A stretch of DNA of 32,638 nucleotides from Actinomycetes bacterium (GTDB lineage: Bacteria > Actinomycetota > Acidimicrobiia > Acidimicrobiales > RAAP-2). The stretch covers positions 1 through 32,638 of the forward strand of contig JAJYPY010000014.1 in NCBI GenBank assembly GCA_021794995.1, written 5' to 3'. Below, one piece after another: positions 5,362-9,634 of this stretch (its first letter is position 1; each line of letters begins with the position of its first letter). The notes beneath the pieces were generated by a model that did not search any database, was not told the origin of the DNA, and worked only from the letters and a program-made list of their open reading frames with translations. The translations under genes were made by a program, and so were the position numbers.

Positions 5362-5571
5362 GTGTCCAAGGTGATGGTGTCGCTTCCCGACGAGCTGCTC
5401 CAGCGGATCGACGAGGAAGCGCGCCGGCGTTCGCTGCGCCGGAGTGCACTGCTCGCGGCCGCCGCTTCTCGTCGAACCCTCGGTCCTGGTCACGTGGTTC
5501 CACTCCGGCAGCTCGCGGGAGGAGATCGACGGTGTCGCGTGGGGCGGGCGTCCGACCGTTCCGTGACGTGA
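5362..5571 (+). pseudogene. ribbon-helix-helix antitoxin-like fragment
   Basis: From the GTG at 5362 (or ATG at 5374) the frame reads KVMVSLPDELLQRIDEEARR followed by SLRRSALLAAAASR, a textbook ribbon-helix-helix DNA-binding half. After about 40 residues the sequence loses any family character (GPGHVVPLRQLAGGDRRC) and the frame runs into the start of the integrase gene, overlapping it by 40 bases. No toxin gene follows. The natural reading is an antitoxin truncated when the integrase segment arrived, but a short functional regulator of the integrase cannot be excluded. Confidence 0.5.
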
Positions 5572-6578
5572 CGGCACGGCGACCCCCATGTGGCGAACGA
5601 GAGATCAGTACCTTCACGGTCTCTGACCTCCTCGAGCGCCACTGGCTGCCGACCCAGGAGTTCCGGAACCTGAAGCCGTCGACGCTCGCGCAGTACCGGA
5701 CGGTCGTCTCCGCGTGGATCCTCCCCCACCTCGGTGACCTCGACGTCTCGGCGCTCACGCCGGCAACGGTGCGCGACCTCCTCGTGCAGCTGCGCACGAC
5801 GACGACGTCGACGGGCCGCGCCGGGCTCTCGACTCGCTCGCTCCAGCTGACCGTGGGCGTCCTCAAGGCCGCCTGCGCCTTCGGGGTCGAGACGGGCCTC
5901 TTCGAGCGCAATCCCATCGGGGTCGTGCGACGTCCGCGCCCCGAGGAACGGACGCCGACGACGTGGACGGTCGACGAAGCGCGGCGCTTCTTGGCCTCGG
6001 TCGCCACCGACCCGCTGGCGGCCCTGTGGGCGCTCCTGTTCACCCGCGGGCTCCGGCGCGGCGAGGCGGCGGGACTCCGGTGGAGGGACGTCGATCTCGA
6101 GCAGGGCACGATCCGGATCGTGCACACGCTCATCGTCGTCGATGGACGCGTCCAGGAGTCCACGCCGAAGACCACGCACGGACGCAGGACGGTGCCGCTC
6201 GACACCTTCCTGATCGCACTGCTTCACGCCCGTCGTCGCGCGCAGGAGGACGATCGCGCACACGCTGGTGGGGCCTGGATGGCATCGGACTACGTGTTCA
6301 CGAACGGCGTCGGCCAACGGCTCGCACCCGACGGGATCAGGATCAGGTTCCAGAAGCTGGCGGACGCCGTCGGCCTCCCGAGGATCCGCGTGCACGACGC
6401 AAGGCACAGCGCGGCGTCCATGATGCTCGCCTCCGGGGTCCACCCGAAGGTTGTCCAGGAGCTCCTCGGTCACTCTCACGTCGATATCACGCTCGGGCTG
6501 TATGGGCACGTGACGCCGTCGATGGGCCGTCAGGCTGGAGAGGCGCTCAGCTCCAGGCTGCTCGGGCCGACACCATGA
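5532..6578 (+). CDS. tyrosine recombinase / integrase
   Basis: The 348-residue protein has the two-domain layout of phage-type integrases: a SAM-like core-binding domain (about residues 27-125) and a catalytic domain. The catalytic set is complete: Arg175 (RGLRRGE), Lys213, His288 and Arg291 in HDARH, His314 in LLGHSH, and nucleophile Tyr324 in LGLYGHV. I chose GTG 5532 because GGGAGGAG sits seven bases upstream; GTG 5568 is also possible. The gene points toward tRNA-Pro at 8587-8661, a classical integration target, with about 2 kb of mixed cargo between. I found no duplicated attachment core, so the element may be decayed. Confidence 0.93.
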   Translation: MSRGAGVRPFRDVTARRPPCGEREISTFTVSDLLERHWLPTQEFRNLKPSTLAQYRTVVSAWILPHLGDLDVSALTPATVRDLLVQLRTTTTSTGRAGLSTRSLQLTVGVLKAACAFGVETGLFERNPIGVVRRPRPEERTPTTWTVDEARRFLASVATDPLAALWALLFTRGLRRGEAAGLRWRDVDLEQGTIRIVHTLIVVDGRVQESTPKTTHGRRTVPLDTFLIALLHARRRAQEDDRAHAGGAWMASDYVFTNGVGQRLAPDGIRIRFQKLADAVGLPRIRVHDARHSAASMMLASGVHPKVVQELLGHSHVDITLGLYGHVTPSMGRQAGEALSSRLLGPTP

Positions 6579-6967: not shown

Positions 6968-7123
6968 TCAGCCCGCGGCCAAACCGACGATCGGAGCAGC
7001 CAGGTGCTTGCCACCCTCGGAGCCGTAGAACGCGGCGGCGCCGAAGCTGAAGACCCCACCGTCGGCTCCGACGAGCCAGTAGCCCTTCCCTGTCGACGTG
7101 GCAGCCATGCCGACGATCGGAGC
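6968..7123 (-). pseudogene. C-terminal fragment of a surface protein with [13 protein letters not shown] repeats
   Basis: On the minus strand this 51-codon stretch reads [20 protein letters not shown], then [18 protein letters not shown], then a second APIVGLAAG before a stop. That is one full unit plus the start of the next of a repeat common in secreted actinobacterial, especially acidimicrobial, proteins, where units of this kind are thought to form blades of a propeller. No start, signal peptide or further units precede it, and upstream sequence in the same frame loses the pattern, so it is the tail of a broken gene. Confidence 0.7.
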
Positions 7124-7444: not shown

Positions 7445-7669
7445 TCAGACTGGCGCTGACAGTTCTGATCGAACCCTGAAGTACCTTGAGTGCGTCTTCT
7501 CGAGAGCCTCCCGGCTGTCAGCGCCAAGCACGACGATCTCGATGTCGGCGCTTGGTGACGCAGCCTCACGAGAGAAACGTTCCTTGAGCGCTACGTTGGA
7601 GTCTTCGTACTCCTCAAGGGCGAGGACCTGCCGGTCAGCCCGGTTGAATACCACCAGAAAATACCTCAT
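7445..7669 (-). CDS. small partner of the RelA/SpoT-domain gene, unknown function (candidate antitoxin)
   Basis: This 74-residue protein starts with the ATG overlapping the upstream gene's stop by four bases (ATGA), so the two are translationally coupled. It begins MRYFLVVFNRADRQVLALEE and contains VVLGADSREALEKTHSRYF. It looks like a small alpha/beta fold with no membrane segment and no DNA-binding motif. I do not know a named family for it. Tight coupling to a stand-alone alarmone-synthetase-like domain is the layout of toxSAS toxin-antitoxin pairs, so a neutralising role is possible, though it could equally be a regulatory subunit. Confidence 0.7.
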   Translation of the reverse strand: MRYFLVVFNRADRQVLALEEYEDSNVALKERFSREAASPSADIEIVVLGADSREALEKTHSRYFRVRSELSAPV

Positions 7670-8463
7670 GGCGTCACCATCGCCGTGCCGCCGAGACGGC
7701 GCTCTTCGAGTACATCCGCGAGTTGCTGTACGTGCGCCTGCAGAGGGGCCAAGTCCGTCTCGACGACGCGACGCAGCTCGACAGCCCGCACATGGTCTCG
7801 ATCACCGCGCGCATCATAGACTGCCAACTCATTCTCAACCTCGGCAAGCCGATGAAGCTGATCGGCGTACTTGATCCAGGAAGTCACCACCTCCGCCCGA
7901 GTGAGCCCAGAGACATAATGGGCATCCGGTGTGCTGGGTGGACCGCCGTACCGCACGTCTCGTCCCCACAGGTCCCCAAACAGCTCCATGGTCTGCGCCC
8001 AGACGTCTTGATAGATGGTGCGGATCTGGATCTCCACCTTGCACCCGTCGACCTTTGGGATGACGTGAACGGCCCGGTAGCCGTGCGAGGGTCTGGTCCG
8101 ACGATCCACCACCTCCGCTGAGGGCCAGATTCCTTTGACCTGGGCCACCAACCCGTCTTGCTCGTCGAGGGTCATTCGCCGAACAACGCGGGCACCGGCA
8201 AGATCCCGGATGGCACGGAGGTTGGACGACGCTGTCCGCTTGAGCTTGTCGACGATGGTCCCGGTGCTCTTGAGTCTGGTGGTCGCCGCCAGCCCGATCG
8301 AACGGAGTCCATCGGCGACCTGAGTCATCGCTCCGTTGTAGCGGATGAGAAGTTCACCGAGGAGGGCGATGTCAGCGGGGTCTGGCGCTGTGCACGTTCG
8401 AAGTCGGTGACCAAGCCGCTCGATCTCCTTGCCAGACAGAGTCACGGCGACCTCATTCAGCAC
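7666..8463 (-). CDS. stand-alone RelA/SpoT nucleotidyltransferase-domain protein
   Basis: The 265-residue protein has only the (p)ppGpp-synthetase-type domain: RLKSTGTIVDKLKR, then RDLAGARVV carrying the metal-binding aspartate, RPSHGYRAVHVI carrying the G-loop tyrosine, and KVEIQIRTIYQDVWAQ carrying the catalytic glutamate. No hydrolase, TGS or ACT domain is present. Helical segments flank the domain, the C-terminal one coiled-coil-like (AEVENELAVYDARGDRD onward). Catalytic residues look intact, so it should transfer pyrophosphate to a nucleotide, or to tRNA as shown for some toxic small alarmone synthetases. It starts at GTG 8463 without a clear ribosome site and is coupled to the small gene at 7445-7669. 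It lies in an integrase/tRNA region, as defence and toxin-antitoxin genes often do. Confidence 0.85.
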   Translation of the reverse strand: MLNEVAVTLSGKEIERLGHRLRTCTAPDPADIALLGELLIRYNGAMTQVADGLRSIGLAATTRLKSTGTIVDKLKRTASSNLRAIRDLAGARVVRRMTLDEQDGLVAQVKGIWPSAEVVDRRTRPSHGYRAVHVIPKVDGCKVEIQIRTIYQDVWAQTMELFGDLWGRDVRYGGPPSTPDAHYVSGLTRAEVVTSWIKYADQLHRLAEVENELAVYDARGDRDHVRAVELRRVVETDLAPLQAHVQQLADVLEERRLGGTAMVTP

Positions 8464-8511: not shown

Positions 8512-8555
8512 GTGACAATTGAGTGACAAGCTCCCCCGTCTCACGCTTGTCACTC
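8512..8555. repeat. inverted repeat between tRNA-Pro and the RelA-like gene
   Basis: GAGTGACAAGC (8521-8531) and GCTTGTCACTC (8545-8555) are perfect 11-base arms with a 13-base spacer, and a third GTGACAA copy lies at 8512-8518. The site is both just downstream of tRNA-Pro and about 60-90 bases upstream of the RelA-like gene, on the minus strand. It could be an operator for the two-gene operon, a tRNA terminator stem (no T-run is seen), or an integrase arm-binding site. Confidence 0.55.
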
Positions 8556-8586
8556 CCCAATCAAGCCGCTGACCTCGTGTTTTGCG

Positions 8587-8661
8587 TCGGGCTGGCGGGA
8601 CTTGAACCCGCGACCTCTTGACCCCCAGTCAAGCGCGCTAACCAAGCTGCGCCACAGCCCG
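8587..8661 (-). tRNA. tRNA-Pro (anticodon GGG)
   Basis: Read on the minus strand, the sequence folds into a complete cloverleaf. The acceptor stem is CGGGCTG paired with CAGCCCG, with discriminator A. The D-arm has GCGC paired with GCGC, the anticodon stem is CTTGA/TCAAG around loop CTGGGGG (anticodon GGG), and the T-arm is GCGGG-TTCAAGT-CCCGC. A leading C with anticodon GGG is standard for proline tRNA. The CCA end is not encoded (CGC follows). The 3' end faces the integrase about 2 kb away. Confidence 0.95.
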
Positions 8662-9083: not shown

Positions 9084-9350
9084 TCAGCTTCGATAGGCAC
9101 TCCGGCGGTGATCGACGTCAAGGACATAGACCGTCTGGGCTTGCTCGTCGATGCGGTAGCGAACGCGGTACTCCCCCCGACGAGCCCGCCACTGGCCGTC
9201 GAACGGTTTTCGAAGCGGAGCACCAACTCGACTTGGGTTCTCGGCCAGAGCTCCGAAGATGAACTCTACGCACGCGCCGGCGACGGCCTCGGGGAGATGC
9301 TCGGCAAGCTGACGGGCAGCCGTTCGGGCCACGACGACCCGAAAGCTCAC
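9084..9350 (-). CDS. RelE/ParE-family toxin
   Basis: This 88-residue protein shows the RelE-fold signature: an N-terminal VVVARTAARQLAEHLPE helix, PLRKPFDGQWRARRGEYRVR, then YRIDEQAQTVYVLDVDHRR and a final AYRS. Basic and aromatic residues of the C-terminal strand (R-x-Y-R-I-D, H-R-R, Y) are those used by ribosome-dependent mRNA-cleaving RelE toxins. It overlaps the upstream antitoxin by four bases (ATGA), so the pair is co-translated. Length is normal and no damage is seen, so it is probably active when freed from the antitoxin. Confidence 0.92.
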   Translation of the reverse strand: MSFRVVVARTAARQLAEHLPEAVAGACVEFIFGALAENPSRVGAPLRKPFDGQWRARRGEYRVRYRIDEQAQTVYVLDVDHRRSAYRS

Positions 9351-9634
9351 TCCGGTGTCCGCCTCGAGCGATCAACCAGCAGGGCACGGACAGCCCCTTC
9401 GTCAAGAACGTCACCATCGGCGACGTCCGCTTCGGAGCGAGCGATCCGCCGCTGCGCCTCGGGATCGCTCAGCAGCTCGAGCGTGGCCTCGATGGACTCC
9501 AGATCCTCCGCAGCCAGGAGCACTACGTAGTCACGACCGTTCTTCGTGATCTTGACTCGCTCATGGGTGGTTGCCACGTCCTCAGCGATCTCAGAGAGCC
9601 GTGCCTTAACCTCAGAAAGTGGGAGCGTCGTCAT
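9347..9634 (-). CDS. Phd/YefM-family antitoxin
   Basis: The 95-residue protein begins MTTLPLSEVKARLSEIAEDV and continues ERVKITKNGRDYVVLLAAED, the Phd/YefM DNA-binding fold. A helical, acidic C-terminal half follows that should bind the toxin. It is the upstream partner of the RelE-like toxin. On its strand a TATGAT hexamer (9648-9643) ends eight bases before the ATG and there is no ribosome site, so the mRNA is probably leaderless. The antitoxin would be expected to repress this promoter with its toxin. Confidence 0.92.
   Translation of the reverse strand: MTTLPLSEVKARLSEIAEDVATTHERVKITKNGRDYVVLLAAEDLESIEATLELLSDPEAQRRIARSEADVADGDVLDEGAVRALLVDRSRRTPE

What the first reader, a model, noticed from the sequence alone, without database searches (positions are those of the whole stretch)
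7445..8463. RelA/SpoT-domain protein coupled to a small unknown partner: candidate toxSAS-type pair
A stand-alone alarmone-synthetase domain with intact catalytic residues overlaps by four bases a 74-residue gene of no known family, in an integrase/tRNA context and with an inverted repeat upstream. Known toxSAS modules look like this and act in phage defence by making toxic nucleotides or pyrophosphorylating tRNA. The partner does not resemble an antitoxin I know, and here the toxin-like gene comes first.
Basis: partly seen in the sequence, partly recalled or inferred. Interest (0 to 1): 0.65.

Follow-up and report, generated by a model that had tools for sequence, protein, structure and literature searches.

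The report
PhRel-type toxin–antitoxin pair in Acidimicrobiia
Two overlapping genes beside a tRNA gene form a toxin–antitoxin pair of an already described kind (PhRel:ATphRel, known from mycobacteriophage Phrann), which probably halts protein synthesis in phage-infected cells; it is a new but ordinary member of that family.

Summary
A 265-aa RelA/SpoT-domain gene (8463→7666, minus strand) overlaps by 4 nt (ATGA) a 74-aa gene (7669→7445), 122 bp downstream of tRNA-Pro. Domain trees place the synthetase in one clade with PhRel, away from housekeeping Rel, RelP/YwaC and actinobacterial SASs. The small gene follows the synthetase in 47 of 47 genome loci found by the toxin alone, across about a dozen phyla. 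Its predicted fold matches best the toxSAS antitoxin ATfaRel2 and also the CapRel antitoxin domain; CapRel's YXXY neutralisation site appears as H-x-R-Y-F (His, Tyr, Phe invariant in 44 sequences). CapRel's R79, R116 and Y155 map to invariant R63, R92 and Y129. Most likely mechanism (inferred from characterised relatives, not shown here): the antitoxin plugs the ATP site; on phage infection it is displaced and the toxin pyrophosphorylates tRNA 3'-CCA ends, stopping translation. The pair is accessory (absent from 12 congeneric genomes). New member of a known kind; low surprise.

The parts
7666..8463 (-). PhRel-type toxSAS toxin (RelA/SpoT synthetase domain), 265 aa, GTG start
   Evidence: Pfam PF04607 3.2e-11; tblastn to Phrann gp29 1e-20; trees; AlphaFold2 model pLDDT 92.9 with CapRel as top Foldseek match
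7445..7669 (-). ATphRel-type antitoxin, 74 aa, overlaps toxin stop by 4 nt (ATGA); neutralisation motif T59-H60-S61-R62-Y63-F64
   Evidence: phrog_22117 2.9e-13; tblastn to Phrann gp30 40%; model pLDDT 85 with ATfaRel2 8pu2 Z 5.9 and CapRel 285-349 Z 4.5; conserved downstream of toxin in 47/47 loci
8521..8555 (.). 11-nt perfect inverted repeat GAGTGACAAGC-N13-GCTTGTCACTC upstream of the toxin; possible operator or leader hairpin, function unknown
   Evidence: longer than in any of 300 shuffles, not conserved in relatives
8586..8661 (-). tRNA-Pro (GGG), immediately upstream; likely genomic island hot spot, 3' end not duplicated in this assembly
5550..6578 (+). tyrosine recombinase (phage integrase family); start codon not fixed; neighbour, membership in the same element inferred only
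   Evidence: PF00589 1.2e-24, PF14659 4.4e-8

Best explanation
A bicistronic type II toxin–antitoxin module of the PhRel:ATphRel (unfused CapRel-like) toxSAS family, carried as an accessory pair at a tRNA-Pro locus of an acidimicrobial (actinobacterial) genome. Inferred steps: the 74-aa pseudo-zinc-finger-like antitoxin docks on the synthetase domain and pushes its H-x-x-Y-F turn into the ATP (pyrophosphate-donor) site between R63 and R92, keeping the toxin inert. [quoted passage not shown] Shown here: homology of both parts, gene order, conservation of the pair, intact catalytic residues, and predicted folds. Not shown: toxicity, neutralisation, substrate, trigger.
For: Both proteins match Phrann gp29 and gp30, adjacent and in the same order in Phrann and in other phages. 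Tree: one group (96/97) with PhRel and CapRel, sister to PhRel (96/88), in the first tree; within the PhRel-like clade (100/97), in an actinobacterial subclade with Phrann (99/90), in the wider tree. PDC-S33, a single 349-aa profile, covers the toxin at 7-189 and the antitoxin at 264-329, and also matches Phrann gp29 and a CapRel-like plasmid protein. Small gene downstream in 47/47 genome loci. Antitoxin fold: ATfaRel2 first, CapRel antitoxin domain sixth. CapRel R79/R116/Y155 and Y352/Y355 map to R63/R92/Y129 and H60/Y63. Literature: PhRel binds tRNA, and translation-targeting toxSASs (CapRel, FaRel2, PhRel, PhRel2) are predicted or shown to be blocked at the donor site (PMC11782079); tRNA-CCA pyrophosphorylation (PMC11559606); gp29/gp30 defends against phage Tweety (PMC9262239); split pairs are usual in Actinobacteria (PMC9712102). 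Absent from 12 congeners, so accessory.
Against: Identity to the studied pair is only 30-40%, and the phage-hit E-values for the antitoxin alone are modest. The first Tyr of YXXY is His. The Z-scores of the antitoxin fold match are low (5.9), as can be expected for 61 residues, and not decisive alone. tRNA as substrate rests on relatives; a (pp)pApp or (p)ppGpp product is not excluded by sequence. The genome is a fragmented assembly, and no expression or phenotype data exist.
Confidence: 0.9

Rival explanations
1. A (pp)pApp-making toxSAS (FaRel/Tas1-like) that depletes ATP, neutralised at the acceptor site.
For: Some toxSASs work this way (PMC11782079); the window toxin model also aligns with Tas1 at Z 10.3.
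Against: The trees put it with PhRel/CapRel, which are described as tRNA-modifying (PMC11559606). The antitoxin resembles ATfaRel2 and the CapRel antitoxin domain, the donor-site class. FaRel itself and Tas1 were not in the trees.
Confidence: 0.06
2. A housekeeping (p)ppGpp synthetase (RelP/RelQ-like small alarmone synthetase) with a small regulatory subunit.
For: Shared fold; structural alignment to B. subtilis SAS1 at Z 15.9 over 170 residues, tied with CapRel at 15.4 over 214.
Against: The NCBIfam RelQ model scores 17.9 bits against a cut-off of 320. Trees separate it from SASs and long Rel. The genome has its own long Rel. The gene is absent from congeners and paired with a toxSAS-antitoxin homologue.
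Confidence: 0.03
3. A decayed or silent remnant of an integrated element that no longer works.
For: A gene fragment lies between the integrase and the pair (6968-7108), no att repeat was found, and no sigma-70-type promoter match was seen.
Against: Both frames are open, with invariant residues intact. In six other loci the toxin frame is interrupted while the antitoxin stays open; here both are whole.
Confidence: 0.1

Closest known systems
PhRel:ATphRel (gp29:gp30) of mycobacteriophage Phrann
   Same: Same gene order, split toxin and antitoxin, homologous along both proteins (32% and 40% identity), identical THSRYF motif in the antitoxin.
   Different: Chromosomal tRNA-Pro locus in an acidimicrobial genome rather than a temperate phage; genes overlap by 4 nt where Phrann has a 7-nt gap; separate acidimicrobial branch.
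CapRel (fused CapRel SJ46 and split actinobacterial CapRel)
   Same: Toxin and antitoxin parts correspond head to tail; catalytic R79, R116, Y155 conserved; antitoxin switch region aligned; related by tree.
   Different: Two genes instead of one; H-x-R-Y-F instead of Y-P-N-Y-F in the antitoxin; sister rather than inside the CapRel group.
FaRel2:ATfaRel2 (Coprobacillus sp. D7)
   Same: ATfaRel2 is the best structural match of the antitoxin model (Z 5.9, 2.1 A over 61 residues); both are bipartite toxSAS modules.
   Different: Sequence identity only 8% in that match; toxin sequence remote.
PADLOC candidate PDC-S33
   Same: One profile covers both proteins of the pair and matches 21/21 toxins and 35/44 antitoxins of the family.
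   Different: The profile is a fused 349-aa protein; no publication naming it was found.

Membership tests
PhRel:ATphRel toxSAS toxin–antitoxin | Synthetase domain groups with PhRel and not with housekeeping RSHs | tested here: met
   96/88 with PhRel; 100/97 PhRel-like clade; 99/90 subclade with Phrann
PhRel:ATphRel toxSAS toxin–antitoxin | Stand-alone synthetase without hydrolase or regulatory domains | tested here: met
   265 aa, only PF04607 above its Pfam cut-off
PhRel:ATphRel toxSAS toxin–antitoxin | Small antitoxin homologous to gp30 / CapRel C-terminus encoded directly beside the toxin | tested here: met
PhRel:ATphRel toxSAS toxin–antitoxin | Catalytic and ATP-coordinating residues intact (CapRel R79, R116, Y155 equivalents) | tested here: met
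   R63, R92, Y129, invariant among relatives
PhRel:ATphRel toxSAS toxin–antitoxin | Antitoxin with pseudo-zinc-finger fold | tested here: inconclusive
   Model pLDDT 85; ATfaRel2 ranks first at Z 5.9 and CapRel 285-349 at Z 4.5, but Z is under 8 and the Foldseek E-values are above 0.1
PhRel:ATphRel toxSAS toxin–antitoxin | YXXY neutralisation motif as in CapRel/ATfaRel2 | tested here: inconclusive
   H60-x-x-Y63-F64: second Tyr kept, first replaced by His; Phrann gp30 has the same HxxYF, so this is the PhRel form
PhRel:ATphRel toxSAS toxin–antitoxin | Toxicity neutralised by partner; tRNA 3'-CCA pyrophosphorylation | not testable with these tools
   Needs expression and in vitro labelling
PhRel:ATphRel toxSAS toxin–antitoxin | Anti-phage defence | not testable with these tools
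   Needs plaque assays; known for Phrann gp29/gp30 (PMC9262239)
Housekeeping RelP/RelQ small alarmone synthetase | Groups with RelP/RelQ; passes the RelQ equivalog cut-off | tested here: not met
   17.9 bits vs cut-off 320; trees
Integrative element at tRNA-Pro | Duplicated tRNA 3' end (att repeat) flanking the element | tested here: not met
   Only one copy of the 17-nt 3' segment in the whole (fragmented) assembly at up to 1 mismatch, and of a 20-nt one in the window at up to 3

The most novel reading that the evidence does not exclude
The acidimicrobial branch, and the PhRel-like pairs found outside Actinomycetota, work through a switched neutralisation motif (invariant His and Tyr-Phe in H-x-R-Y-F, in place of CapRel's YXXY) and may be triggered by a different phage product, making this a functionally distinct, widespread split toxSAS group rather than a copy of the Phrann system.
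Probability: 0.15. Interest if true: 0.4.

Novelty: new member of a known kind. Interest (0 to 1): 0.22.

Why it matters
It adds a defence-type toxin–antitoxin to a little-studied actinobacterial lineage. It also shows that the PhRel arrangement (synthetase followed by a small HxxYF antitoxin) is widespread: the pairs found here come from Acidobacteria, Pseudomonadota, Myxococcota, Chloroflexi, Planctomycetes, Nitrospirae, Elusimicrobia, Gemmatimonadota and others, whereas a DefenseFinder survey reported gp29-gp30 only in Actinobacteria (PMC10482375). The alignment of 44 antitoxins gives a clean, testable neutralisation motif.

Tried and rejected
Rejected: housekeeping RelQ/RelP. Rejected: partner of unknown family, because PHROGs, PADLOC and the Phrann homologue identify it. 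Not supported: a tRNA-Pro att duplication; the inverted repeat as a conserved family feature, and no further copies of it in the window. A two-chain complex could not be predicted with the tools given.

Full report
What is there. On the minus strand, a GTG-started 265-codon frame (8463→7666) is followed by an ATG-started 74-codon frame (7669→7445), the two sharing the four bases ATGA. tRNA-Pro(GGG) lies 122 bp upstream on the same strand. A tyrosine integrase gene lies about 0.9 kb beyond the pair's far end, on the plus strand. The inverted repeat between tRNA and toxin is real (11 nt perfect; longer than in any of 300 shuffles) but is not seen upstream of 17 homologues.

Identity of the pair. 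tblastn against annotated phages gave Mycobacterium phage Phrann gp29 for the large protein (32%, E 1e-20) and Phrann gp30, next to it, for the small one (40% over 97% of its length). The same two genes in the same order occur in phage WST1, Corynebacterium phage IME1320_01 and a Pasteurella phage (in the last the synthetase is not annotated). gp29:gp30 is the studied PhRel:ATphRel module (PMC9712102, PMC11559606, PMC9262239). PADLOC's PDC-S33, a 349-aa profile, covers the toxin with its first half and the antitoxin with positions 264-329. It also matches gp29 and a CapRel-like plasmid protein, 21 of 21 toxins and 35 of 44 antitoxins of the wider family.

Conservation of the partner. Starting from the toxin alone, a scan of 84,980 species genomes found 47 loci. 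All 47 have a small frame with an H-x-x-Y-F motif just downstream: 42 by the first procedure, one as a 164-residue extended form (L062), and four more where the toxin frame is interrupted. In 39 the gap between toxin stop and antitoxin start is -20 to +60 nt, and in 16 it is the same 4-nt overlap as here. Six loci have an interrupted toxin frame but an open antitoxin frame; sequencing error cannot be excluded. In 44 aligned antitoxins A27, T59, H60, Y63 and F64 are invariant and R62 is kept in 43.

Phylogeny. In a tree of 38 synthetase domains the window protein and a same-family homologue form a pair sister to PhRel (96/88), inside a PhRel+CapRel group (96/97) separate from long Rel (including this genome's own), RelP/YwaC and actinobacterial SASs. 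With 71 rows, the PhRel-like group is 100/97, and the window sits in an actinobacterial subclade with Phrann PhRel (99/90), in an acidimicrobial branch of five (100/96). A sister group (97/86) holds pairs from many other phyla. With few columns the deeper order is unsure, and CapRel is not a clean clade in that tree. FaRel and Tas1 were not included.

Structure. The toxin model (pLDDT 92.9) has the tRNA pyrophosphokinase CapRel as its first Foldseek match. In the second look SAS1 and CapRel tie (Z 15.9 over 170 residues; 15.4 over 214 residues), but CapRel is matched over more of the model, including the N-terminal and C-terminal helices (model 7-260). The antitoxin model (pLDDT 85) ranks the toxSAS antitoxin ATfaRel2 first (Z 5.9, 2.1 A, 61 residues) and the CapRel antitoxin domain sixth (Z 4.5, 24% identity) among 990 chains. 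The Z values are low for general use, but the three best rows are all ATfaRel2, which is hard to ascribe to chance. By alignment, CapRel R79/R116/Y155 correspond to R63/R92/Y129, and CapRel Y352/Y355 to H60/Y63.

Mechanism. For CapRel and FaRel2 the antitoxin's YXXY turn blocks the ATP site (PMC9712102, PMC11782079). The PhRel subfamily acts by adding pyrophosphate to the 3'-CCA of tRNA, and Phrann PhRel binds tRNA (PMC11559606, PMC11782079). Phrann gp29/gp30 blocks unrelated phages such as Tweety (PMC9262239). By homology the window pair should do the same; I put tRNA pyrophosphorylation at about 0.75 and a role in phage defence at about 0.65. The trigger is unknown. None of these steps was shown for this pair.

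Setting. The pair is accessory: no match in 12 genomes of the same genus, one clear homologue in the same family among those sampled. In congeners G397 and G402 the stretch between the same DMFA2_C-domain gene and tRNA-Pro holds other genes, so it looks like a variable spot. Among the 47 homologues, 11 have a tRNA gene within the fetched flanks, and L050, L051, L055 and L081 have a related integrase frame. No att duplication was found here, so an integrated element is plausible but not proved.

Verdict. It is a new member of a known kind. Mildly interesting points are the H-for-Y change in the motif (shared with Phrann gp30) and the wide phylum range compared with a survey that reported gp29-gp30 only in Actinobacteria (PMC10482375).

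Noticed in passing
window 9084-9634 (-): A second toxin–antitoxin pair on the other side of tRNA-Pro: ParE-type toxin (PF05016, 9.1e-10) at 9084-9350 and Phd/YefM antitoxin (PF02604, 5.2e-19) at 9347-9634, overlapping by 4 nt.
   Followed up: partly
window 6968-7108 (-): Short frame with a [17 protein letters not shown]-type repeat between integrase and antitoxin, looking like a remnant of a larger repeat protein.
   Followed up: no
L061, L072, L075, L079, L086, L094: Toxin frame interrupted while the HxxYF antitoxin frame next to it is open; fits toxin decay in toxin–antitoxin loci, though assembly errors are possible.
   Followed up: partly
L060 4863-4951, L088 4812-4882, window 8586-8661: In three homologous loci the toxin starts within about 200 bp downstream of a tRNA 3' end on the same strand, with different tRNAs (Ser, Gly, Pro), suggesting repeated capture at tRNA sites.
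   Followed up: no
L059, L062-L083, L087, L088, L091 (non-actinobacterial loci): PhRel-like pairs in many phyla outside Actinomycetota form their own clade (97/86), although a published survey detected gp29-gp30 only in Actinobacteria.
   Followed up: partly
L007 1-1446: On the Pseudarthrobacter plasmid the PhRel pair lies close to a TIR-domain and a caspase-family gene, possibly a defence island.
   Followed up: no
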